Shown piece by piece: positions 1-64,000 of a stretch of DNA of 64,000 nucleotides. How positions within the stretch are numbered: the first letter of the stretch is position 1; the number at the start of each line of letters is the position of its first letter. Origin of the DNA: Carposina sasakii. Lineage: Eukaryota > Arthropoda > Insecta > Lepidoptera > Carposinidae. Where the stretch lies: assembly GCA_014607495.2 (NCBI GenBank), contig CP053169.1:7192001-7256000 (forward strand). Direction: 5' to 3'. Under the pieces are notes generated by a model, which was not told the origin of the DNA, ran no database searches, and saw nothing but the letters and a program-made list of their open reading frames with translations. The position numbers and the translations under genes are program-made.

Positions 1-267
1 TGGGGTTCACAATTTTTTTTTATACTATACCTATTGTTCTGATTGCAAAACCCGCGTTACAAGATACAACTTACCTAATATTACATGACACAAACGCGTA
101 GCAGGAATAGGTAGGTAATCTGTTAGACTATTGTATAGGCAAATTAGAATAGAAATACAATTATGAATAAGTATCTTAATAAAATGTAAATATGTATATA
201 GACTGCCTATGTAATCTTCATGGGTGGGAGTGCACTGCACCAGCGCTCTTTAGGACAAGCCGACACT
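1..267 (-). mobile_element. hAT-like non-autonomous element, cut by the window edge
   Basis: The reverse complement of this stretch matches the outer parts of the element at 12381-13484, from the CACTCCCACCCATG region through to the run preceding GTGAACCCC. It lacks the roughly 750-bp insert that the other copy carries, so it shows the shorter ancestral form. The inner end near 267 has a decayed TIR (GACAAGCCGACACTG against GACGAGCCGCCTCTG). The outer end lies left of the window. Non-coding. Confidence 0.7.
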
Positions 268-546
268 GCCCACTACACCCCCTATAGTTTCTTGATCTAA
301 TGTTAATGATATTTTTGTCTCTAAGTAATTTTGTGTAACATTGGTTATGGACGAGCGAGGCCGCCTGACACAGGTATGCATACTTACTAGGGAGTCTAAA
401 CCTTGTTGGTAAAAGATACATTTAGATAGAACGATTATTTTTATTATTTCTTAACTTTAGGCGAATCACTCATCGATCACTGTTAACTGACAAAAAAAGA
501 TAGCCGATACGGTGACTGACCTTTCATACCTTTAAACATGTCGTAG

Positions 547-17403
<16,857 letters not shown>

Positions 17404-17973
17404 ATAAGTAGCCAAATTATACCGAAAGAACTATCAGCAAGCCTAGCATTATCTGCTATGATAAACCGATTTTTTGACATTATCCTGTCAAAATACGAAA
17501 AATATAGCCGCCTTGTTGAATTTTGTATAGAGACGATACGATATCGTACGATACGATATCCACGATGCGTTGTCATGCTATGGGGTTGATGTCAGCCCGT
17601 TATCTGTGGACTAAGCACGAACGTAATCTTCACATTATCAAATGGGCCCCCGCATTGCCTACCACAAGCAATGCGATAGCAAAACTTGTACAATACTCGC
17701 TGATTCGTTGTAAAATTCGTACTACATGACGTCAATCTCGTAGGAATTTGACATTTTAACGCGAATATTGTACACGCTGTGGCATTGCTTACATGCGTAA
17801 GTAGCCTACGGATCGATAGCATTACGGAGCGTAAAAGTTTGTGTTTGTTCTACTGCCTGGTTGGTTGGAAAATGACATGTATTCGACTAGTTTTCAGTTT
17901 CAAGAAACATTGGTCTGAACAAAATGTCTGAAATTAAGAATGTTTCGAAGTTTAAGCATCGCCGTGCGCGAGA

Positions 17974-17979
17974 AATAAA
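17974..17979 (+). terminator. Candidate SETD1 polyadenylation signal
   Basis: First AATAAA found downstream of the SETD1 stop, about 570 bases on. Further AATAAA motifs near 19113 and 19311 are alternatives, so the 3' UTR may be up to 1.9 kb. Confidence 0.35.
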
Positions 17980-18254
17980 TTATTATTGATTAATGCCCTT
18001 GTTATGATGTCAAGCCAGACGGATTATGCAAAGTTTTGTTTATTACCCGATAATGTTAAAATACGTCTGGAAACGTTTTACAGATATGGAATTCTCGAAC
18101 ATTCTTATTTGGAATAATATGCACTTTTATTTCAATGGAGAATAAAAAAATGTCGCTTACAATTTGAATGATATTAAAATTCTTTAAATTATGCATTATT
18201 TATTTATGTATCCGTAAACAAGAATATTCTTCCTAAAATATTTTTTAAATAGTA

Positions 18255-18513
18255 CAGGGTGTAACAAAAGGGGTATGTTAAGCGAAAAGCTATGAAAATA
18301 GCCCACTAAAAGGAACCTACTCACAAAATTTCAGACTCGAAATCACATGTTTATTTGTCCAGATAATATGGAGAATTCCTATACAACTCCGGTATGTTCA
18401 TACAATCTTAATTTGAAATGTGATTTCGAGTCTCAAATTTTGGAAATAGGTTCTTTATAGTGTAAAGTATTTACATAGCTTTTCGATTAACATACCCTTT
18501 CTGTTACACCCTG
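18255..18513. mobile_element. Tc1/mariner-type MITE, full-length copy
   Basis: Termini CAGGGTGTAAC and GTTACACCCTG are flanked by TA on both sides (18253-18254, 18514-18515), the target preference of Tc1/mariner elements. The inner arms (AGCTATGAAAATAGCCCAC and its relative) are also inverted. Fragments of the family lie at about 26014-26042, 47088-47260 and 55185-55405. Confidence 0.8.
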
Positions 18514-18515
18514 TA

Positions 18516-20560
18516 GAGCTGAGCTCAACAAACCGTGTTTCTAAAGCCGAAATTTAAAGACGAAAGTAGTATTCTTTCTATTCTATGTAAGACAAGTATT
18601 GACTCAAATAAGATTCTGAAATTGCACATGACAAAGTGAAGTCGAGAACACTTACATTTTGTCACGTTCAGCGTAAATTACGCCGCGTAAATATATTACC
18701 GTATGTACAGTCACATGTAATAAAATTTTTACATTGTTGTTGGCCTTTAAATCTAATATTTGTGTATATGTCGAAGTCATATTTAATGCTTATGATTGTA
18801 CTATACACGAAGGCGTAGTTTATACTGCTTCACTTTTCTGCTGATTTACGATTCGAGTTTTTATTTGGTACGTGACGTTTGACTATGTTTCGTCTTTGAA
18901 TCTCTGCCTCAAACCATAGGATAGGTTTTTCAAGTGATTTTGAACTGCCTCGTGAAACTGTAGTCCTTTTGTAATGTAATATAATGTGTGACGGTGTGAT
19001 GTGAACATGTATTACCGATTCCCAGTGTATGTAATGTTATGTTTCCTGTATTATAATAGTTGCTATGACTGAGCGATTTGTAAATTAATATATGTTTGTA
19101 AATTTGTTTTGTGAATAAAGATCTCTGCTGTTTATCAGATTTATGTAGTACACTTTTCAAGTACAGTATGTTATGTTTTCGGTAGTTTCTGTCCATGGCG
19201 CATTCTTAAATGCTGGATTGAAATGAATTAGATAATCGGTAACGAATAGGTATTTAGTAATTCGTTAAAACATTTTTCACAATATTATATAACTTATGGT
19301 TAAGATTGTAAATAAATGATACAGAAAAGTTTGGGCTGTTTTTTTTTCTTAACTAATTAGGTATAGTTCTTTAGAAGTCCAAAAATTGACAGCCGAAAAA
19401 TTAGAGGTTGTTAAGAGATAAGCAAAAGAAAAAACCCTACACAAAATTTGGAAATCGCAAAGGTTTAGTTTTCGAGATTGTGTGGACATATTCCTAAACT
19501 AGGAAACGCCCGCGACTCCGTCCGCGTGGACTGCAAAAAAAAAAAAAAATGTCGAAATTATCCGGGATAAAAGCCTATATGTTAAGTGGGACCAGTCACA
19601 TTATATTCCTAAAAACTGCATTGAAATCGGTCCAGCCGTTTCAGAGATTAGCGTGTACACAAACATCGATCCGTTACATTTTTATTATACATATGTATAG
19701 ATATATAGATTGCTCAGGACTTCATACAATTCGGCAAATAGGGTAGTTGATAGTTTTTTTATTTGTATTTATATCGAAAGATCATAAAATAAAATAAACA
19801 TTTGCGAAAGAAAAACTTCGCTATCATGAATACTTTCCGGGATATAACGATTTCAAAATCACAATCTTAGACTTGCCAAAAAACGCTCCATACAAACAGC
19901 TACCACGACGTGACGTCACTCTTTCAGTAACTTATATGCGCGTGAAAGAAATTTTGTTCTACTATATGCTACTCGTATATTAAATATTACGTTTACAAAT
20001 ATGGTCACAGAACAAAAGTTGCTGTAAATGATGTAGGTGGACATGTGATTTTGTAATTTTCAATTAATTTCACATTTAAAAAATGGATTTGCCCACTTAA
20101 CTTTGAAAGCTTATTACTACCTCATTTGGACACATAATCAAATTGTAATTTTACAGATAGGTATGGTTTTGATAATTTATTCTGATAAGCATAAAATGTT
20201 ATTAAGATTCAACCATAGGAAACTACCCCATCGTTTACTTAAATTACATTCATTTACATCCTGTATTAAAAGAAGTCGCGTGTTACAGAAAGTGCACAAG
20301 TAGGTATAGATATACATTATTTTCTTACGTCAATATCTTCCTCAATTTTTAGCATAATAGATATTTAAGCATGTTGTGGCAAATTCAATTTAGCGTGACA
20401 AACCGAAAGGTTGTCGTATACCTACCGTTTATTATTTATATTTAACACATTAAATGCCGAGAGCAATATAGGAATAAACTATACCTCTATATCTAACCAG
20501 AACTGTAAGCACGGGTATGGAAAGTCTTAGAATTGCAGAGACGATGCACACAAGGTCAAC
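18516..20560. other. Intergenic DNA, no gene seen; one dispersed repeat copy
   Basis: AT-rich sequence with only short frames. 19508-19715 is a copy of the repeat starting GCCCGCGACTCCGTCCGCGT that recurs at 27041, 39905, 51571, 53037 (minus) and 60774 (minus). 19840-20100 resembles 54770-54842 (AAAAGTTGC, TTTTCAATTAATTTC), another dispersed fragment. Confidence 0.6.
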
Positions 20561-20579
20561 TCACCGATTTTTTACGTAA

Positions 20580-20895
20580 AAAATACAAGCGTTTTCCCCC
20601 CGAAGGGTAGAAAACGTATATTTTGGGTCTAGCCAAGGCTTGACCCTTCGGAGATAACGTCTGGTTAACTCTTCGTGACTATGTGTGCTTTCGATCCCAT
20701 TTCACAGCCCGCGCTCGCCGCTCTCCTGAAGGAGGAGGGGCGGGGAGCGCGGGCACGCTGCGACCGGCGGTGCGAAGGCGCTCTCGTTAGTACCTGCTCC
20801 GAAGATGGCCGGCAAGAGCTTGCTCGGGTCAAGCCTTGGCTAGACCCAAAATATACGTTTTCTACCCTTCGGGAGAAAACGCTTGTATTTTAAGT
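20580..20895. repeat. Inverted repeat around a GC-rich core at the DIRS element terminus
   Basis: About 75 bp containing TACAAGCGTTTTCCCCC, GAAGGGTAGAAAACGTATAT and TTGGGTCTAGCCAAGGCTTG is repeated in reverse at 20825-20893. It flanks a GC-rich core (20705-20790). The motif CTAGCC(N)GGCTTGACCCTTCGG occurs at each junction. This may be part of the inverted terminus or internal complementary region used in DIRS replication. Confidence 0.6.
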
Positions 20896-21324
20896 CTAGC
20901 CGTCGGCTTGACCCTTCGGAGATATGTTTGATTTCTGCCGGGCAAGAAGCAGCGTACTGTGAAACGGGAAGTAATGTAATAATACCTCTTGGCTTGAAAA
21001 AAGATATAAAATAAACACCCAGTACATACTCAGAAACAATATTTTTTATTAAAAAGAAATGTGAATTTTTAAAAAAATTATGACAAACTTAAAGTAGAAA
21101 ATCAACACTAACCTGTTACTTTGCGTATTAAACATAATATATTATGTATATGTATGTATGATTCACATAATGAGATCAATAAATTAAGCCAATAATAACA
21201 GCATTCGAAAACTACGCAATAAAACATAATTGTTCTTAAATTTACAAATTATTGTTATAAAATTCCCTATTTTAAAGGGGTAACACAGATTGAACATTAC
21301 CAACCAAATCTGAAGAGGTACGAT

Positions 21325-21528
21325 TTATTTATATAAAATAGAATTTGAAAAAGAAAAAGTGCTCTCACTTCTCCAATTACCTCTCGACAAAACTTCATCT
21401 ATAGAAAGATTTTGAAAATTCTTTGATGCCACAGCTAACCTAACGCTTCCCGGAGAAGCATCTATTCCTAATACTTTAAAGACGGAACCTATCCATCCCG
21501 CAATTATATATCTTATGGCTGCTTTCAC
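21325..21528 (-). pseudogene. Tyrosine recombinase C-terminal fragment (DIRS)
   Basis: The 67-residue frame with IAGWIGSVFKVLGIDAS, GSVRLAVASKNF, LSIDEVLSRGNWRSESTF matches the carboxy end of DIRS recombinases (box pattern HSTR...AGW...TFxxFY). The catalytic His of HSTR appears as Gly and the terminal Tyr region reads FSFSNS, so it is probably inactive. Confidence 0.6.
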
Positions 21529-22279
21529 TGGGCCTCTAGTAGAAATAAATAAAGAAGATAAATTTATCCCTGCTCTACCTACGAAACTCAGTGATCGGGA
21601 TTAAAGTCTTTAACCACAGAACTGGGTTTAAAGTTATAATAGAACCCGTAGACAAATGCTAGCCCGATTGTCGGTTTGTTGAAGAGTCTGTCTTGGAACC
21701 ATATCGTGGCCAAAGTGTAATTTTGTTATCGTGAACTTCCATATCATACAGTCCAATATGTAAGAGAGTTAAGTCGTGTAGCCTACGGCCTGATGCTAAT
21801 AGGAGTAATAAAACCACATGACGGGATACCTGATAAAGATTATTTTCCTGAGGAGGGTAACATTAAAAGTTCGCTAGAGTAAGAATTAGCAAAAGTGTAT
21901 ACAACAGACTTATGTAACTGAATGGTTTGTGATGCAAAACCGTGAACACGGTAAATATATCATAAAAACCGGGCTAAATCGGATGATTTTGGATTGTTTC
22001 TAGCCACGTCGTTGTTGGAGGTCCTACTACACCAACGAGACCAAGCCGCTTTAGGATTAGGATTTCAATGGTGGAATGGAATTTCAGAGGTTGATTTTCT
22101 CCATGAGTTATATATATAATCCCAATTAGCTGATCCCTACCCCCTGATGACCCACCTACCTTCCAGGCCTCCAAATGTATGGGGGAGCCAAGGCTCTGTT
22201 CTTTAGGTCGGCTCTCCAAAAGACTGCTCCAACGAGGAACTATTAAAATGTAAAACCCCTGGGCCGTGTTCCAGTGTGA

Positions 22280-22480
22280 AAGTACTTTCGGGATTAAAGC
22301 TGGCGGAGGACAGACATTCCCGGCTGAACGTATTTACAAACCATGCCTGAGGATCTCTTGCATCTAGAGATACATAGTTTGGTATTACTGCTGAACTCGC
22401 CGACGCGAACAGGTCTATGCATGGCTTGCCCCATTTCTGAAAAATCTTTTGAAGAATTCCCGGGGACAGCGTCTATCACG
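22280..22480 (-). pseudogene. DIRS post-RNase H segment fragment
   Basis: On the minus strand one frame reads FQKWGKPCIDLFAS, followed by PNYVSLDARDPQAW and FVNTF. This is the (K/F)xGxPxxDLFAS...P(Q)AW signature that follows RNase H in DIRS and related pol proteins. It is not in frame with the RNase H fragment at 22595. Confidence 0.7.
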
Positions 22481-22594
22481 TGGGAAGGTTCTTCCTACGT
22501 GATAAGCGATCGGCCTCGACATTGTAACGACCAGGTAGATGAAAGGTTACTGGTTTGATTTGTGACTGAAGACACATCATTAATAGATCGGAGG

Positions 22595-22879
22595 TTAATT
22601 TGATAAGACATGATGACTTGGTTCATTTATGTACGCTACTACTGAACGATTGTTCGATTGGACTACGACAACATGACCTTTCAGAAGTTGTTGATAACTT
22701 TTGACTCCCTGAAATACTGCAAAAATCTCCTTCACATTAGAGTGCCACTTCGACTGACTTTTGTTCCATACTCCCGATAATTTTATTCCGTTCACCGATA
22801 CCCCCCATCCTGACCCCGAGGCATCGGATACGATGTAAATCTTTGGGTCATCGATTATTATTGGAAAAGTTTTGTTCAA
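22595..22879 (-). pseudogene. RNase H fragment of DIRS pol
   Basis: Residues YIVSDASGSGWGVSVNG, GVWNKSQSKWHSNVKE, KGHVVVVQSNNRSVVAYIN match the RNase H domain of DIRS elements (DAS...GWG, W(N)xE/S..WHxNxxE, D/SNxxVVAYI). One catalytic Asp reads Ser (QSNN). Confidence 0.75.
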
Positions 22880-22900
22880 ATTCCTTAACCACCAACCTAG

Positions 22901-22989
22901 ATAGATAGATAAAATTCTTTATTGTACTACAGCAAAAAACACATGTACAAGGGCGAGCTTAATGCCTTGCAAGGCATTCTCTACCAGCT
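22901..22989 (-). mobile_element. Truncated LINE/SINE 3' end inserted in the DIRS pol region
   Basis: Flanked by the 7-base duplication AACCTAG (22894-22900 and 22990-22996). On the minus strand it ends with an AATAAAGAATTTTATC signal and a TATC simple-repeat tail, the form of a target-primed retroelement 3' end. It splits the DIRS reading frame between RT and RNase H, so it arrived after the DIRS element. Confidence 0.75.
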
Positions 22990-22992
22990 AAC

Positions 22993-23514
22993 CTAGGTCT
23001 TAAAGGTACTTGCTTGGGGACAGAATATAACTGGCTTGGACGATCTTCTGGGAATCGGTTTGATGCCCTCTGTAAGCTTCTGCAATGTATTAGACCGAGA
23101 GGAACTACAAAGGCTGCGAAAACTAGACGACTGTGGAGAGATTTGGCCCGAAGCCAGCTCCATTCTTCCTTTCTGATGATCACTTGAATGTCGTTTCAAA
23201 TACGGCCCTTCTTGTCCGCATTCAAAAACTTTACGTTCTGAGATGGATTCAAAATTATCCCGAGATACTCTTCTGAACGGTGCGGAGTCAGAACCGTTTT
23301 TTTTTTCCAATTTATTTGTCGACCTAGATCTAAGAGAAAATCTATTCACAAGGTGAAGAATTTTTTCCATTTTCTTTATTAATAATTTTAGAAAATCTAT
23401 TGTTTGCCTGGCAAGAGTCTCCGGGCATTGGTGAGCTAGAAAGAAGTCGTCTAACAGCCAATTTCTATAACTGATCTTGAGAGATTTCTTGCATATCTCA
23501 GATTTAATCTTCAA
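22993..23514 (-). pseudogene. Reverse transcriptase fragment of DIRS pol
   Basis: The frame includes NWLLDDFFLAHQCPETLARQ, matching the catalytic (Y)xDD block and the following helix of DIRS reverse transcriptases (LDDFLL...SPE). After about residue 75 the frame no longer reads like RT, so a frameshift is likely. Non-functional. Confidence 0.65.
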
Positions 23515-24034
23515 TTGTTTTCATACAAAATTTCAAATTAGGAATAGAAAAATCCGATATTCTCTTTGTTCTCTCGTGTTAAAATTGGCCGTAAATACAC
23601 CACGACCCTGATGCTCTTTTCTCTTAGTTTGCTTGCCACCCAGTTGGTAAGACGAGAGAAAATTAAAGGAGCTATCGACAGTCCAAAAGGAAGAGCAGTT
23701 AATTTATTTATTATTCTTTAAATATTCTAGGACTTAAAATTAGGTACAACGTCCCACAAAACTGCTTGCACCGTTTGACTGTGGGATCCGTGATTAATAT
23801 TAAATACTATGTACTAGAGTGCGTTTCACCGTATAGCTCCCATGGAAGATGGCGCCCGTTACTATGTGCATGACCGCATTCTTTGTATTATGATCTACCG
23901 CTTTTTTTTTTTTTTTTTTTTATTTCTTTTTTATATTTCTAATTGCACAGCTGAGCCGTGAATTGTAATTGCGATATTCTTCGGGCTAATTATGAGCGCT
24001 CTTCAAAAATCGAAGTTTAGGACTTGCAATTTTA

Positions 24035-24265
24035 TCATTTGATAAAATCTTTCTGAGACTGCAGTTGCTTCTTGATCAAAGCCTTCACTAATATCAATGT
24101 TGAAATGGCGAAATGCAACTTGCTCAAAATTGCAAAGTCGATCTTCCTACCAATAAGGTCTTCTTTTGATAAGTCACAAACATTCCATTCATCCCATCCA
24201 TCTGGGAAAAGGATATAAATCGCTTCCACAATTCTTTCAAGAAACAGCCTGTCTGTCTCGTCCAA
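24035..24265 (-). pseudogene. Possible gag-like remnant of the DIRS element
   Basis: A 76-residue frame (MDETDRLFLERIVEAIYILF start) lies upstream of RT on the same strand, where gag is expected. No recognised motif; the assignment rests on position only. Confidence 0.35.
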
Positions 24266-24465
24266 GGATTTTAACTAGCGAGTGGAGAGATCCGCTATAG
24301 TGATCATATTCTTGCTAAGGCCATCTGAATGATCAACGGAAACTTCAGTGAGTATGAGATGCAACAGGAGTCAAAGACACGGAAATGCCTGTGGCTCAGT
24401 CGGGTCAGACGTGATTCCAATAAAGTAAAGACTCATGCCCAAATTTAATACGACATATGTAGAAG

Positions 24466-24715
24466 TACGATACGACTAGAAGAATTTGTTATGCCGTGTC
24501 AAGGAATTCGATAAGACTTGTCACGAAGTTTCATGCGACGCGTCATGAGTTTCATACGACGCGTCATGAAGTTTGATACGACTCATCGTGAAGTTTCATA
24601 CGACGCATCATTAAGTTTGATACGACGCGTCATGAAGTTTCATACGACGTGTATGGAATTCTGATACGTCGTGTCAAGGATTTTGATACGCCGATTGGCA
24701 AAAATCCATACGACT
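24466..24715. repeat. Minisatellite of about 28 bp with palindromic GACGCGTC core
   Basis: Roughly nine imperfect units alternate TTTCATACGACGCGTCATGA and TTTGATACGACTCATCGTGA types. The core GACGCGTC is its own reverse complement. The array lies between the gag-like remnant and the right end of the DIRS-like element, in what would be its 5' untranslated part. Confidence 0.75.
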
Positions 24716-25690
24716 TTAAAAGTCGACACGACAGGTGTCTGTCTGGAGTAACAGGACATGTCTCGCATCGTTTTAGAAACAGTATGCGTTTTGACACAGA
24801 AAAACCTCTGCCCGGGGGGCGTTATTGAGGTAAATTATAAATGAATTTGGTCATTGCAAATTCAACCAAGGTTATTAAGTACTATAAGTACATAGCTCTA
24901 GTAAAACGAATGTTCGTTACTTGAGTCAAATCGCTGGAAATAAAGGAAATTAACACAAAACCCTAAGAAAGATTAAGTTAACAGCATTAACTACGAAAAA
25001 AAAAAAAAAATTCTTAATTAACAAGATTCTTAACTATCGCGGCTGTTTACACAGACAATAAGGTATCCGCGAATATAAAACTGGATAACTAAATTACCTA
25101 TTTATTTTTACTGGGAATTTTAAAGCCAAGAAATATTGAATTACCTTAAAATACGTACGCTCGATCGAACAGTCTCACTGTTGTTGCGTATCACTTAAAC
25201 ACACATAACACACGCAAGGTTAAACAGCGTACTGACGAGAGCGCCTTCGCACCGCCGCCGGTCGCAGCGTGCCCGCGCTCCCCGCCCCTCCTCCTTCAGG
25301 AGAGCGGCGAGCGCGGGCTGTGAAATGGGATCGAAAGCACACATAGTCACGAAGAGTTAACCAGACGTTATCTCCGAAGGGTCAAGCCGACGGCTAGACT
25401 TAAAATATAAAAATCTACCACTTCACAGTATGGTGCATGTGGTTACACTTTTCGTAATAATAATTTATTTTTCATATAGACATAATTTAACATGGTAAAA
25501 AATCGTACTTATGTATTAAGTATTACTTATATTAAGTACTCACTCATTACTTAGCGTAAACAATAGCGACTGATGTAGGTATAAACCTGTATTTTAGATC
25601 ACTTCATCAAACTACTGGCACTTTTTCAGGGTTCTTGGAGGTATTACCTATATCTAGTAGGTAGGTACCTACAAATGAATAAACACTTAT

Positions 25691-26350
25691 AGCCTACGAA
25701 GACAACGGAGTTTTCTCCGCGGGGGAGAAAACTACCCCGAGGATTTACCCCAGACCATTCGCGGACTCAACGCACAGCACACGGTGTGCGATCATTTCAT
25801 AGAGGAGAATAACTATAGAGGAATAAAGAGCCAACTCGGTTATTTTCTGTCGCTCACTTACGTTATTTTAAGCTCCATCTCTTTTCTGGGTACCGAAATG
25901 ATTTATGGATATATTAAAGAAAATAGATACGTATCTACACATTAGCTGTACTACTAACTAAATAAACGCGATGAGATAAATAAAAAACTCATTTAAATTA
26001 TTTATGCTTACTACTTAACATACCCTTTCTGTTACACCCTGTGTAGGTAGGTAGCAACGGAAATATCAAAGTTTCGGAACCCAGAATAGAGATGGTACTT
26101 CAAACGACGTAAGTGAGGTGACACAAAATAACCGAGTTGGCTCCCTAATCACGCGAGTTCTATTTTTTTTCGAGGAATCTCGCGACTTTTGTCCGCTCTG
26201 CTCCCTGCATGTCCACGGTTAATCGGCGGACTTAAGTATATACTTTAATCCGGCGTTTGTGTTGCTAGATACATTTGTAAGCGTTCTATTTTATTGGCGG
26301 AGCGTGCTTTTTTCTCCCCCGCGGAAGAAAGTACGTCGCATGCGTAGGCT
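25691..26350. mobile_element. MITE with AGCCTACG ends and GC-rich subterminal palindrome
   Basis: Ends AGCCTACG and CGTAGGCT are inverted; near both lies CTCCGCGGGGGAG or its variant CTCCCCCGCGGAAG. A second, inner pair of arms (AGCCAACTCGGTTATTTTCT and its complement at about 26085-26145) gives strong hairpin potential. A fragment of the CAGGGTGTAAC MITE (about 26014-26042) is nested inside. No coding frame. Confidence 0.7.
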
Positions 26351-26555
26351 ATTAATAGAATCATAGCAATGACAGTGTTAATTGCATCAAGGTATAATTT
26401 GAAAGAAAAATATTGTATTGATGCCTAATTACTCGCAAATTATTGACATATCAAATATACTGAAACATCTGTTACTATACTAGAGTGTATTTAATACAAA
26501 GTTCCTAATGGTGTTAACACAGTTGAATCTTGACTTCACGGAGAAAACTAGCAAG

Positions 26556-29500: not shown

Positions 29501-32500
29501 TAAGTGCTTTATTGTTGTTTTTCAAACAACTATGAAGTACTGAGATCTGAATTCAAATATAGATTCAAGATAAATCTAAGACTTCATGGATAAGGATTTT
29601 GCGTTTGTTTTTATCCAGTTTACGAAGATTGCCCATAGGATATTAAGAAACAAATTAAACTGTTCCTGATAAGATATCTGAAAACTTCATTAAAATCCGT
29701 TGGGTAGTTTAAAAGATCTAACTAAGCGAACAGACAGCAGGAGCGACTTTATTTTAAACTATCTCCAACGGATTTTAGTGCAGTTTTCAGCTATGGATAG
29801 AGTGATTCAAGAGAAAGCTTTATACGGACGGTTTAATTAGTAGTTAGTAACGTGTACGAAGTAGCGGGCAACCGCTAAATAAAAAAAATTACTCATTGGT
29901 TTTCGTAACTCTGTTGCTTTAGATATGGCTCCAAAGAAAAATTATACTCAGGAAGCAATGGGAAAAGCCATCGAAGAAGTCAGGCAGGGAGAAAAGGTTG
30001 CAGTCGCTGCGAAAAAGCATGGTGTCCCAAGAATTACTTTACATAACAAAATTACTGGGAAGAGTCCAGAAGAGTGTAATATGGGCCCAGATACTATTCT
30101 TACAAAAGCTGAAGAAACGATTCTTGTAAATTGGATATTTTATATGGCGGACAACCATTTTCCCATTACAAAAGATCAGCTTCTTGATAGCGTTCAAAAA
30201 ATCGTCATGGAAAAGAACCTGGGGCCTTCATGTCCTTTTACCAATAATCGGCCAGGAAAGAAATGGTATAGCTCGTTCTTAAAACGACACCCGGATATTG
30301 CATTACGCACTGCTCAAAATCTAACAAAAGCAAGAGGAGATGTCACAGAAAAAGAACTTAATGAGTGGTTTTCAACAAATACTGATTATTTAAAAAATAG
30401 AGGATTATACGACGAAATAATAAACGACCCTCGACGTGTTTTTAATACAGATGAGAGTGCGTTTTTCCTACAACCAAAACCTGGACGGGTACTAGTACGA
30501 AAAGGGGAGAAAAATGTTTATAAAAATTCTGGTGACGAAAAAGAAAATTTAACCGTGTTAATAACCGCAAATGCCGCGGGAGAATTGGCCCCACCGATGA
30601 TTGTGTTCCCGTATGAAAGATTGCCAGTAGTAATTGCAAATAGTGTCCCAAAAGGGTGGGCCATCGGTAGGTCCGAAACTGGTTGGATGTGCGCTAGAAC
30701 CTTCTTTGAATATATGTGCAATGTTTTTAACCCGTGGTTGGTTGAAAATAATTTACCCAAACCAATAGTGTTTTTTCTTGATGGACACAGATCGCATATG
30801 ACTATGCACTTATCTGATTTCTGCAAGGACAACGGAATAGAAATTATAGCTCTTTATCCCAATTCGACTCATTTGCTCCAACCTATGGATGTCGCTGTAT
30901 TTAGACCTTTAAAAACCTTCTGGAAAGACCAAGTTACCACATGGAAAAGTGAAAATCAGGGAAAACGCCTAAGGAAAGAAAATTTTGCTTCAAAATCAGC
31001 TGCTTTGGTAAAAGTATCTGCAGGAGCGATCAAAAATGGATTCCGCAAGAGCGGCCTGTACCCGTTTGGACCAGATTATGTGGATATGTTCAAAATTAGT
31101 GCACAGAATCGTGCTGAACCAGCTGAATCTAGAGTGATCGAAAAGTCGCAGTTTATGAAAAAACTGGAATCAGAAATTAAAAGTATATTCTCACATGAAA
31201 AACTGACTTTGTTTAATCGACTGTATTACATGCCGAGAGCTGATGTTAATAATTTATTACCAAATGAGGATCAATCTTTGTACATAATCTGGGCTAAAAA
31301 TAAGAATGTTTTGGAAACGGGAGCCAATGAACAACAGAATACTCTAGAACAATATACACAAACACATGCCACTCAACATCAGATAATACAAGAGGAAATA
31401 AGGCTAGAACATAATAAACAAGTAGGAAATACAGAAGTAGCGACTAGACAAAGACTGAGCATACAGGGACAGATCATACTAGATCAGAATATATCACCAC
31501 CAAATGCACAAGAAGATAATTTACTAGAACAGAATACAGAAAACCCTAATGCACAAGGACAGATTATACAAAGACAGTTCACGATAGAACAGAATACAGA
31601 AGGACTAAGACACACTGAAAACGAAGAGGAACAGAATGTGCATGTACATAACACGACAAAACATAATACACAAGAACATAATGCACAAGGACAGCACATA
31701 GAAATAATTAATCATCTGATTGGACAAGCAAACAAGGAGCAACCATTTTTAACCGTATATTCTACACCAAGTAAATTGGTTAATACAAGTTTGCCTTCAA
31801 CTTCAACATCATTTCCAAAAGATTTAGTTATCCCGTCACCTTTCAAACGTGCCTTATTCTGGCCCGAACATGAAACAAAAAAGCGACGTACCAAAGAGCG
31901 TTTACCATCAGCTATAACTAGCGACACCTGGAGAGAATACATGAAGAAAAAAGAAAATGAAAAGAAAAAAAAGCAAGAAGAAAAAGAAAAACGAATGAAA
32001 GAAAGAAAAGACAAGAAAATGCTAAAGGAAAAGATGATTCTAGAAAAGAAAAATCAAAAACTTAAAAAAACGAAAAACCCAAAGATCTTAATAAGCCAGC
32101 AGGATACGTCTTCAGACGAAGACATGGAAGTTCAGTATGCTGAGAGTGGTGACTCCGAGTATGATGAAAGTGAAAAATCTGATTCTGAAAATGAACCTTT
32201 AAGTAACATGAGATCCAACAAAAAAACATTCCGTACACAAGAAATCAAAGATAAAAAGAGGGGTACCATTGGGTCCTACGTTATTGTAAAGTATGAGGGA
32301 GAATATTTTCCAGGTAAAATAGAAAAAACAGAAGAAGATTTATCTGAAATAAGTACAATGGTATTATCTGCAGGAAACTCTTTTAGATGGCCAGATAAGC
32401 CAGATAAAATATGGTATAGAGCAGAAGACGTTATAGAGAAAATTAATGACCCTTTGCTTCTCAATAAGCGAGGGTTCTATAAAATTATAGAAATGGAAAA

Positions 32501-34494
32501 ATATTTACCTGACATTTACAACATTTAGGACAGGAAGTTGATCGTTATTTATTTATACGTGACAGTGCAAACTTAAGTTCTTACTTAATATTTATGATAC
32601 CGAAATAAATAATTTAAAAATATGAATACTTATTTTACTCCTCTCTTAATATTTGGAACGCCTAGTGTCCATAACTAGGTCCAATACTGGATGTCCATGA
32701 CTGGAAGCTGTCCAAGATTGGATGTCCAAAAGTGGGTTCTACTCTGTTCATTACTGGTGTTCGTTAATGGCCCTATATTTTTTTATTTATTTCTAAAGGC
32801 TATAGAGATAGCGTAAATTATCAATACATAAACTCAAAGGTAACGGTTTTTTAATAATTTACAAGCAAAATTTCATCCATGTAAATGATAACCTACACAC
32901 AAATGTATAAAACATAAAAAGTTGTTCTTAAACTGTCCATTATTGGTCCCGTTACCTTATATAACCTGTGACATGCAATAAATGAATCTAATCTAAAAAA
33001 CATCCTTGACTCGGAAACAAACATCGATATTCATCATATCAATGTTTGCACCTACCGGGATTCGAACCCAGGACCTATGGCGTCGCAGACAGGGTCACTA
33101 CCTACTAGCTAGACCAATCGGCCGTCAAAGTGATAGTCACGAATTACATAAATTTAAACACCTATCAGTCTATTACAGTCCACTGCTGGACGTAGGCCTC
33201 CCCCAGCACACGCCACTACGCTAAAAAGCTAAATGCTATAAACATATCCTAATGTGGATAGAAACATCGATATTCAGCATGATCTATGGAAATTTATAAA
33301 CAATTTAATAATGTTATTATATTACCAATGTTATTATATAAACAAGGGATTTCGAAACCAGGATTTTTTAAAATCATTTTCTTCATAATATTTATAAATA
33401 AAATATGGTTTAACTTAACATAAACATCACGTCCAGATTTTGCGCCCGTCCTTTTCTCAACTTTTTGGCCAACTGCGGCAAAGCCAGAAGGTTAATGTAT
33501 TTTAACAGTGTGACAGCCTAGCCTAATGGTTAAAACGTGCGCCTTTCAGTCGGGAGGCGTGGGTTCGATCCCAGTCACGGGCCTGTACCACTGAATTTAT
33601 TTCATTTACTGATTTTCCAAAATTGTCATTTAACTACATCCTAGGAGGGTTAGCGTCAAGCAAACAAACCCCAAATCATTGGTAGTATGAGTTTCCGCCG
33701 CTGCGAGATTGCGCCGATCCCATTAATAATAAGATAAGGAAGATGATGTGCATGTTTGTTCTTTCAGCTGTAAAAGATGTAGCCGAGCATGACATAAACG
33801 GAGTAAAAGAAGAAGTCCATATAGGAGAAGACAAAGTAAAAAGTAAGTTAATTATTAACTACAATTACTTCATTACGTAGTTATAACAAATACGTTGTTT
33901 GGAATTCTGCTTTATAAATTCATGGGGAGAGTTTATATGTAGGTACATACCTAGATACACAAATGATGCGCCCGGCCCCCGTATGATGAATTTGGTGAGA
34001 GCGAGATGTCTCACTATTAAACGTCAAATTCACAGAGCTATTAATAACTAGATAAACTAAGTGTATGTCCTTTTTGTGTAAAAAATAGACTTAACGAGTT
34101 AGAATAGACACTCGTTCTCGAGCCAGGATTGAATGAATTATACACCAAGTAGAAACACTTGCCTTGTCTAGTTATTACCTACTGTTCTAGTTATTATTTA
34201 CTACTCTGTGGATTTGACGTTTAAAAGTGAGACATCTCGCTCTCACCAAATTCATCATACAGGTGCTGGTTTAAACAACTACCTACAGTGAAACTTATAT
34301 CATCTATGTACAATGAGGGCGTTCATACTGGTACAGAGGCAATACACTAAATTAGAAAGTAACTTTCTACGTACTACCTTTGTGCCAAGTTCAATCTAAT
34401 TATAATTTAGTAATTCTCAATAAATAACCATACATATTTTTTGTTTTCAGCCGCTTATAATACTGCTGAACAAGTAGTTAGCGACGGAATATAA
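26556..34494 (+). CDS. Small secreted His/Val/Lys/Asp-rich protein, six exons, function unknown
   Basis: Exons 26556-26603, 26737-26776, 28256-28321, 28513-28578, 33768-33842 and 34451-34494 have AG/GT borders and join in one frame of 112 residues plus TAA. The start at 26556 gives a clear signal peptide (MFKLTLLSLALLSLHFALYD, then CASVEA); an in-frame ATG at 26508 would spoil it. The mature part is hydrophilic. The three middle exons (66, 66 and 75 bases, all phase 1 at both ends) each encode a related 22-25-residue block with V-x-x-V-E/A-H ... V ... D/H patterns, suggesting exon duplication. There is only one Cys. It lies between SETD1 and PI4KA and hosts a 4.2-kb pogo transposon in its fourth intron. 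I do not recognise the family; amphipathic helices or metal binding by His are guesses. Confidence 0.75.
26815..27010 (+). repeat. Dispersed retroelement fragment
   Basis: CTAGCGGCCGCCCACGGCTT, GTGCGAAGCCGGGGCGGGTC and TCAAAATCCGTTCC resemble a fragment at 14104-14180 (GTGCGAAGCCGGGCGTGTCC). Non-coding, in the second intron of the small gene. Confidence 0.5.
27041..27345 (+). mobile_element. Dispersed 300-bp repeat, copy 2 of 6
   Basis: Starts CTAGTGGACGCCCGCGACTC, passes GTAGCCTATATGTTAAGTGG and TCGAAATCGGTTCAGCC, and ends CATTTTTATTATATGTATAG. Other copies: 19508-19715, 39905-40228, 51571-51785 (diverged), 53037-53335 (minus) and 60774-61096 (minus). Sharp shared borders and no inverted ends suggest a SINE or LINE tail; the exact class is unclear. 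Confidence 0.7.
29180..29375. promoter_or_regulatory. Left subterminal cluster of GTCCATNACTGG motifs
   Basis: Several copies of CCAGTCATGGAC, GTCCATAACTGG, GTCCATTACTGG and GTCCATGACTGG occur in both orientations. They match the cluster at 32664-32775, and the TIRs contain the related ATGGACAGT. Such symmetric clusters usually are transposase binding sites, here probably for the psq/HTH domains of the element. Confidence 0.65.
29925..32528 (+). CDS. Pogo-superfamily transposase, 867 residues
   Basis: An N-terminal pipsqueak-type helix-turn-helix (about residues 5-48: YTQEAMGKAIEEVRQGEKVA, then HGVPRITLHNKI) is followed by a CENP-B/Tc5-like second DNA-binding part (W-x-x-x-F-L-K-R-H-P near 114-123). 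The DDE_1 catalytic core has D176 (FNTDESAF), D286 (FFLDGHRSHM) and D322 (LQPMDVAVF), a DD35D spacing. The tail is unusual: a Gln/Asn-rich stretch with repeated EQNT/AQEHN-like words (about 460-620), a Lys/Glu-rich coiled region (about 675-725), an acidic Ser-rich patch and a final module with IGSYVIVKYEGEYFPGKI and KIWYRAEDV. All catalytic residues are present and there are no stops, so it may be active. No intron. Confidence 0.93.
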   Translation: MAPKKNYTQEAMGKAIEEVRQGEKVAVAAKKHGVPRITLHNKITGKSPEECNMGPDTILTKAEETILVNWIFYMADNHFPITKDQLLDSVQKIVMEKNLGPSCPFTNNRPGKKWYSSFLKRHPDIALRTAQNLTKARGDVTEKELNEWFSTNTDYLKNRGLYDEIINDPRRVFNTDESAFFLQPKPGRVLVRKGEKNVYKNSGDEKENLTVLITANAAGELAPPMIVFPYERLPVVIANSVPKGWAIGRSETGWMCARTFFEYMCNVFNPWLVENNLPKPIVFFLDGHRSHMTMHLSDFCKDNGIEIIALYPNSTHLLQPMDVAVFRPLKTFWKDQVTTWKSENQGKRLRKENFASKSAALVKVSAGAIKNGFRKSGLYPFGPDYVDMFKISAQNRAEPAESRVIEKSQFMKKLESEIKSIFSHEKLTLFNRLYYMPRADVNNLLPNEDQSLYIIWAKNKNVLETGANEQQNTLEQYTQTHATQHQIIQEEIRLEHNKQVGNTEVATRQRLSIQGQIILDQNISPPNAQEDNLLEQNTENPNAQGQIIQRQFTIEQNTEGLRHTENEEEQNVHVHNTTKHNTQEHNAQGQHIEIINHLIGQANKEQPFLTVYSTPSKLVNTSLPSTSTSFPKDLVIPSPFKRALFWPEHETKKRRTKERLPSAITSDTWREYMKKKENEKKKKQEEKEKRMKERKDKKMLKEKMILEKKNQKLKKTKNPKILISQQDTSSDEDMEVQYAESGDSEYDESEKSDSENEPLSNMRSNKKTFRTQEIKDKKRGTIGSYVIVKYEGEYFPGKIEKTEEDLSEISTMVLSAGNSFRWPDKPDKIWYRAEDVIEKINDPLLLNKRGFYKIIEMEKYLPDIYNI
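32664..32775. promoter_or_regulatory. Right subterminal cluster of TCCATNACTGG motifs
   Basis: GTCCATAACTAGG, TCCAATACTGG, TCCATGACTGG, TCCAAGATTGG, TCCAAAAGTGGG, TTCATTACTGG and TTCGTTAATGG are spaced over about 110 bases directly after the transposase gene. They mirror the left cluster at 29180-29375. Confidence 0.65.
32990..33225 (-). mobile_element. tRNA-headed SINE (minus) followed by repeat fragment
   Basis: On the minus strand a tRNA-like piece ends in GGTCCTGGGTTCGAATCCCG (B box). The same piece occurs at about 51480-51560. It adjoins a fragment with CACTGCTGGACGTAGGCCTC (33178-33215), shared with 800, 40800 and 49260. It lies just right of the pogo element. Confidence 0.6.
33516..33745 (+). 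mobile_element. tRNA-headed SINE (copy 2)
   Basis: Head with an A-box-like CCTAATGGTTAAAACGTGCG and a B box GGGTTCGATCCCAGTCACGG, then GCCTGTACCACTGAATTTAT as in the copy at 14890. The region to 33745 continues with GCGTCAAGCAAACAAACCCC, related to 61225. It ends close to the splice acceptor of the small gene's fifth exon (33768). Confidence 0.7.
33981..34260. mobile_element. MITE, TATGATGAATTT family (copy 2)
   Basis: Same inverted arms as at 12795-13077 and 40845-41100 (GAGATGTCTCACTATTAAAC; the right arm ends AAATTCATCATAC). In the last intron of the small gene. Confidence 0.8.
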
Positions 34495-37400: not shown

Positions 37401-37950
37401 CATATAATACAGGTTATCTACAAATATTTTCTACTGACACGCACTTGATAATACTAAATTTGCTTCAACATACACAATGTCAATATTTTTGATACCATTT
37501 GAAAATTGTGAAATAAATAGGCGGAATTGAATAATAAACATATTTTAACATAGAATAGGGTTAATGGTTAGTAGAAATATGAATAGTTATTGAATTGATA
37601 AAGGTATAAATAGTCGGAACGAAATCTCAAAATATTGACATTATTTGACATACTCCATAGGCAGATTATTGTGGTAACTAAGAACACAGCTTTGCTTGCG
37701 GTACGGAAATGATTGCTATTATTTGCATCTATGTTACACCATTTTTAGGGCAGCTTATATTTTATATCTCATGGAATGACAGAACAATATTCAAGTGTTT
37801 ATCCATGTCGTTTTGACATAATAGAATATGTATAGGTATATGACTCACGTCACATTATACCAGGGACGAGTTAGTCATATCTCAAAAATGCATTATATCA
37901 AGCTTTTCCGAATATGAAGCTATATAACATAGCTATAAATGCACATGTCT
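34495..37950. other. Intergenic DNA between convergent genes, no gene seen
   Basis: AT-rich with only short frames. 34771-34860 is a relative of the small TIR element at 10482. 35985-36100 is a dispersed repeat (CATCTCAACTATACCCTC, CCGTAAGGGATAAAGGCGTG) shared with 62915-63035. 35510-35650 is locally GC-richer without a reading frame. It may include 3' UTR of either neighbour. Confidence 0.6.
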
Positions 37951-38792
37951 ATGTCGTGGCCATATCGTAGAATTGATCATTTCATGAAATGGTCGAGCAT
38001 TTCATGAAATGGTCGCATTTCATGAAAAGTTCAACTGTCTATTGGCCACATCATGATATGGTTTGGGCAGATCGATGATTAAAAATCGTTTCTCGATATG
38101 GGCAACTAAACGCCCGATCATTTCATGAAGTGGTCAAGATTATTGATCATATCGTAAAATAGTTACATGAATCACCGGTAGAGGCGCTGCGCGCGTTTTA
38201 TTTATGTGTGAAGATGGCGGATTTTTCTTTTTAGGTTATAAAACAAATTAAAGAGAGTAGGGTGACTATGCAGAAGAAGTTCACGGATAGTGTGTTATAT
38301 TGTATAATGTATATTAGATTGATTAATGGTGGTTTATAATAATATTGTTAAACAAAAACCTTAGATTACGATAGGTTAGGTTAGGTTAGACTATGACAAA
38401 TGACGCACGAGCCGAGCGAGCGGAGCGAGCGTGCCCAGGCAGCGTCCGGCGATGTGCCAGATGCGAATCGCTTTTGTAAAGTCTTTTATGTTTTTAAATA
38501 TTATATTGTGAAAATATCACATAAATAATAGCAAAAAAAATCATACCATCATACCTTATGGTATACTTATATATGGTGTACGGTATATATTATTTATATA
38601 AGCTCTTACCACATTCGGATTTTATGGACACCCTGTTAATACGATTTGGCCAAACGTGGATGACAAAATCGTGAAATGTAGACGATTTAACGATCTGGTC
38701 AAATTGAATTGGCCACTTCATGAAATGCGACCACTTCATGAAATGCTCGACCATTTCATGAAATGATCAATTTAACAATATGGCCACGACAT
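37951..38792. mobile_element. TIR element with palindromic CATTTCATGAAATG motifs
   Basis: The termini ATGTCGTGGCCATATCGTAG and its counterpart CAATATGGCCACGACAT (38776-38792) are inverted. Both ends carry two or three copies of the self-complementary motif CATTTCATGAAATG or a variant. The 840-bp element has no transposase frame. The repeated palindromes are likely protein-binding sites for the enzyme that mobilises it. Confidence 0.75.
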
Positions 38793-38902
38793 CTATACTA
38801 TACGCCAACCCTCGTGGCACACGCAGTCATAAAAGTTATATGATAGCGCGTGCCATGACAGTAGGCGTATAGTATAGTGTCGAATTTAATAACACCAATA
38901 TT

Positions 38903-38908
38903 TTTATT
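38903..38908 (-). terminator. Candidate PI4KA polyadenylation signal
   Basis: AATAAA on the minus strand, about 730 bases downstream of the PI4KA stop codon. Other AATAAA motifs further on (for example near 35690) are possible, so the 3' end is not fixed by sequence alone. Confidence 0.3.
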
Positions 38909-39633
38909 TTGGAGTGAATATGACAAGTCCCACCCCGATACAATTTAACGTGATTCACCTTAAAAATATTAGTAGTATTTACGTATACCATAACTACATT
39001 AACATTCCGTTAAAATTTCACGACAATCAGCATACTTAGCTTACTATTGCAAATATTATTCATTATTATTCAAATTCCAGTCAAAATAAGTACAAACCGA
39101 TATATCAAGCTCCTCCTAAGATAGTTGATTTAAAATGAATTACTGCTCATGTATGGAACTAGATTTCACTAGGGATGGTCTTACCTAATATCTCCTTCAC
39201 CATTTCTTCTTAACCTAACTCTTCCCTTAGGTAAATGCAGAATCAAGACAAATTTCCAATTCAGTAAATTTTGAAATACAATGTGTTACTGGATTAACAT
39301 AAAAACTGAAATATGTATAACCAAAAAGTTAAGTATGCATTTATATAAATTATGATGAAATATTGTAAATGGTACAATATCTATATTCTAAAGACTATTG
39401 AATATTAGCCGTTAATATATGATATGTTAATCCAGAAACACATATATTTTACTAATATAATATTTCATTTTAGAGATCCATGAATGCATGTTATTAGTAA
39501 TGACTAATAACAAAAAAAACCCATACATAATTCACTGTCAAATCTCCCCCCACCCAATTTGGGTGCCCATAAGTTATAGCCTTACTTACTCTTTGAAAAG
39601 AACTACATCTATATTAAACAACACCGAAACAAT

Positions 39634-62708
<23,075 letters not shown>

Positions 62709-64000
62709 CTGTAGAGATTATAGGGTTATAATATTCTTATATACTTTTACATAATGAAGGTTGTTTTTGATTGAAAGTTAGTTGCAAAATCTCTATTTGT
62801 ATAGATATAGCTAGACCACGCTAAGTTTGCAAATTAATTAAATACTTAGCAACTTCATAAACTATTTTCATTCACTAGCAAGTTGTCATTTTTGACACAA
62901 TAACCGAACTTCTACATCTCAACTATACCCTCAAAATTGGTCAGAAGTGGCACTATGTTGTCCTATCGGCCCTTGGTGCTCTGCCTAGCTGCCTACCCGG
63001 TAAGGGATAAAGGCGTGATTATATGTATATATGTAAGTTGATAACAATTAATATTAAAATTGTGTGAATTTAATAAAACCATGGTTAAATTATCATTATG
63101 TAAATAATACTGTAATATGTAGGGGAAACTTAGAATATTGTAATTTATAAATACAAACCCAAAAAGCACATTCTATAAAAACGTCAATAAAAATACAGAA
63201 TAAACAATTAGCTACAACCATATTTATAAATACACAACGCACACTACTTTCCTGCTAGGAAGCACACCAACTGTCCAAAATAATCTATCAAATACAGTCT
63301 GCTAATAACCAACAACGTCCAATATAACAAACTCAATAAAGTACAGCATGGCTTTTATACAAACCTGTTAATGATGCTATATCTTTTTAAGCCGCGTCAT
63401 ACATTGGGTTACTGGTCCTACAGTCTTCAATAATGTATACTATACCGTACAATAAAAAATACCGTTAGACTCATTAATTTCATTTCTAACTCTTTGAACA
63501 CACGACTTACTGTAAGACTGTTAATCAGGGACCACCTTCTGACAGTAGACAATTTAACGCGCTTGATTTTAATTTAATTTTTTATTCGATATATTATAAC
63601 CAACCGAAAGATAATGCGTTGAATTGTAAGGTTTACGATTTCTCGACAGTTTAGTAGAAAAGAAATAGATTACAAATATAATCTTACGGTGTTTAAAATT
63701 TTAAGGTAAGAAATATAACACATCAAGTGTGTGTCAAGGACAGACATTTACTATTCCATTCAATTTGTAGCCAAGTTTGGAACTAAGTCAAAACCCAATG
63801 TGTGGCGCGAGCATAACATTATGATAAAAATTAACATCGCCTATTCGGCCTAATAAATTATTTATTTTATAGAAACACATTAAAACAAACTGTCTAAGGT
63901 GGATCTTAAAATTAAATAACTGGGTTCACTTATACGTCAAAACAAGAAAAAACATAACAAATACAAATAGAAAACATAGACAAATAAAAAACATTGAAAT
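62709..64000 (-). other. PI4KA intron running off the window, no exon seen
   Basis: AT-rich and without a splice-bounded frame matching PI4KA. 62915-63035 is a dispersed repeat (CATCTCAACTATACCCTC ... GGGATAAAGGCGTGATTATA) shared with 35985-36100. The exon at 62435-62708 opens in phase 2, so at least one more coding exon lies beyond 64000. Confidence 0.7.

What the first reader, a model, noticed from the sequence alone, without database searches (positions are those of the whole stretch)
1..64000. Repeated amplification of exon ends with 5' splice sites across the locus
Four arrays with different unit lengths (93, 68/48, 20, 109 bp) and unrelated sequences all include one exon end and its donor, in two genes on opposite strands. 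None includes a splice acceptor. Three single decayed copies in SETD1 introns fit the same process. If tandem arrays arose at random within introns, four of 42 SETD1 and PI4KA exons being hit at the donor and none at the acceptor is surprising. A mechanism acting at donors (nick or break tied to transcription, R-loops, or templating by pre-mRNA) or selection favouring donor redundancy are possible explanations. As far as I know this pattern is not a described feature class.
Basis: inference. Interest (0 to 1): 0.88.

Follow-up and report, generated by a model that had tools for sequence, protein, structure and literature searches.

The report
Tandem arrays of moth exon ends
In a moth or butterfly genome the ends of some GC-rich exons, with their splice donor, have been copied in tandem into the next intron, while the same was hardly ever seen at exon starts, probably because copies behind the first donor do no harm.

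Summary
SETD1 and PI4KA carry four tandem arrays (93, 68/48, 20 and 109 bp units), each beginning inside an exon and running over its splice donor; none covers a real acceptor. The pattern goes beyond the window. In seven genes (260 exons), same-strand exon copies spanning the donor occur at 7 exons, copies spanning the acceptor at 0; three of the seven lie outside the window, all in one DNAH3-like dynein gene. Genome-wide, the donor word GCAGGTGAG recurs 25-55 bp apart 66 times at 10 places (reversed control 1), CAGGTAAGT 10 times at 9 places (control 0), but the acceptor word TTTGCAGGT only 3 times (control 3). Flanks could be read at 2 of the 10 places; both look like exon ends, one in a LIM domain. 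Hits concentrate at GC-rich exon ends: 6 of 22 donors with at least 60% GC, 1 of 233 others (split chosen after looking). In PI4KA only the first donor of each array keeps an open frame. I favour ordinary tandem duplication of GC-rich exon sequence, kept where extra copies fall behind the first donor, over a donor-directed mechanism or selection for spare donors. No annotation-based genome-wide count or RNA was available.

The parts
1091..1748 (+). A1: 7 copies of a 93-bp unit: the last 87 bp of SETD1 exon 1056-1177 plus the first six intron bases GTATTA; the six extra donors are in frame
   Evidence: TRF; exon model; copies; frames
1056..1177 (+). SETD1 exon whose end and donor (1177|1178) are amplified
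   Evidence: spliced alignment to P0131 and P0122; the five fetched orthologous proteins carry one copy
1761..1786 (+). A1 outlying partial copy including the donor
   Evidence: (26 bp, 100%)
44819..45979 (-). A2: 68/48-bp array, 18 donor words, copies of the end of PI4KA exon 46069-45947 with its donor
   Evidence: TRF; exon model
42082..42165 (-). A2 continued beyond the mariner-like insertion (19th donor word at 42113)
   Evidence: sequence
42166..44818 (.). mariner-like element inserted in array A2, 2653 bp, terminal inverted repeats identical over the first 100 bp, TA target duplication
   Evidence: transposase-like ORF 43184-44269 (family by eye)
50630..50950 (-). A3: 16 copies of a 20-bp unit starting at the end of PI4KA exon 51120-50941; 8 of 16 keep GT
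   Evidence: TRF
58839..59271 (-). A4: 4 copies of a 109-bp unit of the end of PI4KA exon 59374-59183 with donor; unit ends share CCTAGACAA
   Evidence: TRF
11073..11098 (+). decayed copy of the end and donor of SETD1 exon 10600-10750
   Evidence: shuffle test
15900..15939 (+). decayed copy of the end of SETD1 exon 11231-11360, 4.5 kb downstream
16103..16136 (+). second decayed copy of the end of SETD1 exon 11231-11360

Best explanation
These are minisatellites founded on exon ends. GC-rich exon sequence in this AT-rich genome is prone to local tandem duplication. A duplication whose unit runs from the exon across its donor puts all extra copies, each with its own donor, into the intron behind the original donor. 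If the first donor goes on being used, the mRNA does not change, so such duplications survive, expand (to 19 copies in A2) and decay. A duplication across an acceptor puts copied exon and intron sequence in front of or into the exon, usually changing the mRNA, and is removed; in-frame duplications within an exon survive only in tolerant regions. Shown: the arrays, the donor bias in the samples, the GC association, and that only the first donor is productive in PI4KA. Inferred: that the first donor is used in the animal, that duplication arises by slippage or repair between short direct repeats, and that purging explains the lack at acceptors.
For: Among 260 exons of seven genes, same-strand exon copies spanning the donor occur at 7 exons and spanning the acceptor at 0. 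GC-rich exon ends: 6 of 22 donors against 1 of 233 (Fisher about 1e-6); outside the window 3 of 13 against 0 of 202; GC-rich exon starts 0 of 30. The 60 bp just upstream of the array are also GC-rich (58-82%) for 5 of 6 arrays, so GC is not only a by-product. Introns near acceptors are poor in local duplications (0 of 255 at -50, 1 of 255 at -100) while introns near donors are not (5 of 253 at +50 and at +100; these five include the donor arrays themselves). Last partial copies repeat the start of the unit by 7, 9 and 16 bp in A1, A4 and the L031 array, as slippage between short repeats would leave. In PI4KA 0 of 28 extra donors tested keep an open native frame. Genome-wide donor words: 66 matches at 10 places against 1, and 10 at 9 places against 0; acceptor word 3 against 3. 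The two flanks read look like exon ends. Human parallel: an 8-bp donor duplication in OCT1 gives only 0.3-0.6% alternative transcript in liver (PMC8137991, abstract).
Against: No RNA evidence of which donor is used. In the same OCT1 abstract, minigenes gave 38-52% alternative splicing, and classical in-vitro work with duplicated donors favoured the downstream one (recalled), so neutrality of donor copies is not given. Outside the window all three hits lie in one gene, and its last 10 kb (L031) was fetched because the gene already had hits; 3 to 0 alone gives p = 0.25. The GC cut was chosen after seeing the data. A2 sits in an exon end of 49% GC. Two SETD1 copies lie 4.5 kb away, which tandem duplication does not explain. 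One exon-internal copy lies 406 bp upstream of its exon in DNAH3, and one weakly supported DNAH3 exon has inverted copies over its donor. Three of the 10 GCAGGTGAG places have AT-richer units.
Confidence: 0.55

Rival explanations
1. A mutational mechanism acts at donors: transcription-linked breaks, R-loops at GC-rich exon ends, or repair templated by nascent pre-mRNA, so duplications start there more often than elsewhere.
For: Two donor words are strongly over-represented in local pairs genome-wide. Hand count: 5 donor-covering arrays against about 0.7 expected for random founding units (searches give the expectation). Two SETD1 copies are non-tandem. GC-rich exons are where R-loops would form (recalled).
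Against: Scripts alone counted 2 donor arrays against 0.7 (P 0.16). Outside the window the excess is small (1 of 8 arrays scoring 100 or more, against 0.26 by my hand tally). By the cruder measures donors do not stand out: 9 of 244 donors (two at wrongly placed borders) against 49 of 900 random positions, and 3 of 253 donors against 3-5 of 253 positions 50-300 bp into the intron; these measures count every copy of an array. Depletion at acceptors suffices for the asymmetry.
Confidence: 0.2
2. The arrays are ordinary minisatellites whose core motif happens to look like a donor (GCAGGTGAG resembles the human minisatellite core, recalled), so enrichment of donor words does not reflect exons.
For: Some of the 10 places have units that do not look coding to the eye (C19, C20, C31). 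A scrambled word GTGCAGGAG also gives 11 matches, though all at one place, and its reversed control 8 at places not shown.
Against: The window arrays, two DNAH3 arrays and both flanks read sit at modelled or open exon ends. Units differ in sequence. The AT-richer donor word CAGGTAAGT is enriched too (its letters were not shown, so tandem structure was not seen). GGGCAGGAG itself could not be tested.
Confidence: 0.12
3. Selection favours spare donors or the isoforms they make.
For: A1 copies are in frame and open, so downstream donors would add 31 residues each. In other species an extra copy appears in predicted proteins, e.g. Spodoptera frugiperda PI4KA isoform X1 but not the other isoforms aligned.
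Against: 8 of 16 A3 copies lost GT; 0 of 28 extra PI4KA donors keep an open native frame; 2 of 9 DNAH3 copies carry a weakened donor.
Confidence: 0.06
4. Ascertainment or assembly artefact: the window was picked for its arrays, and genome-wide there is nothing special.
For: 4 of 40 donors in the window against 3 of 215 outside, all three in one gene.
Against: Copies differ by substitutions and spacing, and a mariner-like element is inserted in A2, so they look like real DNA; reads were not available. Genome-wide donor-word pairs are far above control.
Confidence: 0.07

Closest known systems
Internal tandem repeats at exon-intron boundaries in human segmental duplications (De Grassi and Ciccarelli 2009, PMC2812944; passages read)
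   Same: Minisatellite expansion at exon-intron borders that changes exon or intron extent and can create alternative splicing.
   Different: There: recently duplicated human paralogues, and no donor/acceptor split (neither word occurs in the held text). Here: conserved moth genes, donor side only in the sample, linked to exon GC.
[quoted passage not shown] 2016, PMC4974935, abstract read; AGGT model)
   Same: Tandem duplication across a splice junction supplies ready-made splice sites.
   Different: Here the arrays lie behind an existing donor and lengthen the intron. The potato case crosses the boundary of intron 1 and exon 2, an acceptor side.
Repair-mediated duplications (Pace et al. 2009, PMC2671141, abstract and passages read)
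   Same: Short local copies of exons and splice sites placed nearby, a model for the two non-tandem SETD1 copies.
OCT1 8-bp donor duplication (PMC8137991, abstract and two passages read)
   Same: A duplicated donor with the normal one mainly used in liver.
   Different: A single 8-bp duplication in humans, not an array.

Membership tests
Minisatellite (tandem array, unit roughly 10-100 bp) | head-to-tail copies of a 10-100 bp unit | tested here: met
   the 109-bp A4 is slightly longer
Minisatellite (tandem array, unit roughly 10-100 bp) | copy number varies between individuals | not testable with these tools
   one assembly only
Boundary tandem repeat (De Grassi and Ciccarelli type) | array spans an exon-intron border | tested here: met
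Boundary tandem repeat (De Grassi and Ciccarelli type) | transcripts show alternative retention of repeats | not testable with these tools
   no RNA; predicted proteins of other species only
[quoted passage not shown]
   no extra intron is needed to fit the orthologous proteins, but gene structures of orthologues were not available
Dispersed repeat carrying a donor | unit found at unrelated places in the genome | tested here: not met
   A1 only: two matches, both in or beside the array; searches for A2-A4 did not complete

The most novel reading that the evidence does not exclude
Exon ends are recurrent founding sites of minisatellites across this genome and across Lepidoptera, produced by a process tied to the donor itself (transcription, R-loops or RNA-templated repair at GC-rich exon ends), so that introns grow from their 5' ends by copying exon sequence. 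GCAGGTGAG is only one of many donor words, so ten places for one word and one spacing range would mean hundreds of loci.
Probability: 0.2. Interest if true: 0.85.

Novelty: new variant of a known kind. Interest (0 to 1): 0.6.

Why it matters
It names a directional route by which introns lengthen and minisatellites arise, at the 5' splice site and from exon sequence. It also supplies natural experiments on splice-site choice: in A2, 19 near-identical donors in a row, of which only the first can make the protein. It may mislead gene prediction in moths, because extra copies are sometimes annotated as coding. With RNA and several genomes the donor/acceptor bias can be tested directly.

Tried and rejected
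Donor hotspot against random positions: one search suggested donors are no richer than random positions, but it counts every copy of every array, so I also estimated founding units. Both automatic runs mis-handled arrays (A1 or the DNAH3 array filtered out, A2 and A3 cut at the border); the figure of 5 is a hand count and the outside-window expectation of 0.26 hand arithmetic. In one search one donor and the single acceptor hit (1 of 244) fell on a DNAH5 N-terminal exon without support, and one DNAH3 donor was misplaced; these were dropped. Exons with BLOSUM sum below 40, under 40 bp or under 20% identity were dropped. The DNAH3 exon with the array (3151-3344 of L023) fell below that cut and was put back by hand because its protein matches DNAH3; the L031 exon was added by hand too (Pfam found nothing in its translation). 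One search kept same-strand copies outside exons within 6 kb; two DHC12 rows with 4 exonic bases at an acceptor were not counted, and 10 minus-strand hits were set aside, among them inverted copies over the donor of one weakly supported DNAH3 exon. The Fisher table has 233 where 232 is right. In one search the DNAH3 donor positions were one base off, so I make no frame claim for that array.

The protein comparison used 57 PI4KA, 26 SETD1, 11 DNAH5 and 13 beta-dynein sequences out of 120 listed per search. Exon-internal repeats in Maniola, Danaus and Papilio (the last starts near an exon start but holds no intron-like residues) were counted for neither side. Repeats in non-moth proteins found (Timema, Diaphorina, Laodelphax, Lutzomyia) were not classified. 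PDB search of the 48-residue C15 exon found nothing.

Literature: the listings of searches showed no report of donor-only exon-end arrays in insects; the library lacks most subscription papers. Recalled, not from calls: AG scanning, in-vitro preference for downstream duplicated donors, the human minisatellite core, R-loop biology.

Full report
The window is C22:7192001-7256000 of an unnamed 399 Mb, 31-contig assembly. Its PI4KA matches Lepidoptera best, the top hits at 83-85% identity. I aligned orthologous proteins to the DNA with a spliced aligner of my own and obtained a PI4KA model of 37 exons (minus strand) and SETD1 (plus strand); 42 of their exons lie in the window.

The four arrays are as described. 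A1 (1091-1748) repeats 93 bp seven times, from within SETD1 exon 1056-1177 through CAG|GTATTA. A2 (44819-45979, minus) repeats the last 33 bases of PI4KA exon 46069-45947 with its donor, mostly in 68- and 48-bp units, 18 times, and a nineteenth copy lies beyond a mariner-like element inserted in the array (2653 bp, inverted repeats identical over the first 100 bp, TA duplication). A3 (20 bp, 16 copies) and A4 (109 bp, 4 copies) start at the ends of exons 51120-50941 and 59374-59183. Unit ends share short repeats (CTGTCGT in A1, CCTAGACAA in A4).

What would extra donors do? In A1 all six extra full copies are in frame and open, each adding 31 residues. In PI4KA none of 28 extra donors tested (18 in A2, 7 consensus-like ones in A3, 3 in A4) keeps an open native frame, so PI4KA can be made only from the first donor.

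To test the pattern outside the window I fetched the flanks and parts of five dynein heavy-chain loci (354 kb with the window) and annotated them with dynein proteins. A scan of 260 exons for same-strand copies of exon sequence in introns within 6 kb gave seven exons with copies spanning the donor, none spanning the acceptor, two with an internal exon fragment 16 and 18 bp behind the donor, one with a fragment 406 bp upstream, and the distant SETD1 copies. The three donor cases outside the window are all in one gene, whose joined exons match human DNAH3 best in the PDB: a nine-copy 43/48-bp array at C10:13686344, a two-copy 112-bp duplication at C10:13676479, and a decayed copy at C10:13691819. 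No donor-spanning same-strand copy was counted in DNAH5, beta dynein or the two other dyneins.

The hits follow GC content. Of 22 donors whose last 100 exonic bases are at least 60% GC, six have a donor-spanning copy; of 233 others, one (A2). Outside the window it is 3 of 13 against 0 of 202. Of 30 equally GC-rich exon starts, none. I found this after seeing the cases, and the last 10 kb were chosen because DNAH3 already had cases.

Proteins of other moths and butterflies give a second view. Spodoptera frugiperda PI4KA X1, one of two Choristoneura PI4KA models and Cydia strobilella SETD1 contain a second copy of an exon end separated by what looks like translated intron start, as expected if the annotation used a downstream donor. 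No acceptor-type case was found among the 107 sequences compared. Maniola, Danaus and Papilio have exon-internal repeats in one PI4KA exon. Independent cases thus stand at 6 donor to 0 acceptor (two-sided 0.03), three of them from one gene.

The genome-wide test I could make is indirect. The pair GCAGGTGAG N25-55 GCAGGTGAG matches 66 times at 10 places, its reversed control once. CAGGTAAGT pairs match 10 times at 9 places against 0. The acceptor word TTTGCAGGT matches 3 times against 3, and a scrambled word 11 times, all at one place, against 8 for its reverse. Chance pairs from base composition would be 0.04-1.1 per word. The tool calls its counts lower bounds. I could read the flank of only 2 of the 10 places. 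One is the end of a LIM-domain exon with 43-bp units. The other is an open frame between an acceptor-like site and CTGCTGCAG|GTGAG, with no PDB relative. Seven of ten units are at least 66% GC.

My reading is that local tandem duplication strikes GC-rich exon sequence, and that what survives is what leaves the mRNA unchanged, namely duplications across the donor. Depletion of duplications just upstream of acceptors, but not just downstream of donors (the latter counts include the arrays themselves), fits. A donor-directed mechanism remains possible. Selection for spare donors does not fit the decay of A3 donors (8 of 16 keep GT) or the frames. Closest precedents are boundary tandem repeats in human duplicated genes (PMC2812944), tandem-duplication intron gain (PMC4974935) and repair-mediated local copies (PMC2671141).

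Noticed in passing
window 42166-44818: Mariner-like element with inverted repeats identical over the first 100 bp and a TA duplication, inserted inside array A2; the array is older than the insertion.
   Followed up: partly
window 29883-32528: Long open frame of 881 residues, between the two genes, that looks like a pogo/Tigger-type transposase (by eye only).
   Followed up: no
C15:4353776 (not fetched): A dynein heavy-chain match in an open frame of 3896 residues, apparently without introns.
   Followed up: no
window 682-792: TCATCA-type repeat starting 5 bp behind the SETD1 donor at 676.
   Followed up: no
window 10760-11060: Reverse-transcriptase-like fragment lying between the SETD1 donor at 10750 and its decayed copy (by eye only).
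   Followed up: no
C15:10971867-10971910: Three copies of a roughly 17-bp unit with an acceptor-like TTTTTGCAG|GTACCCC, the only tandem among the three matches of the one acceptor word answered; whether it is an exon start is unknown.
   Followed up: no
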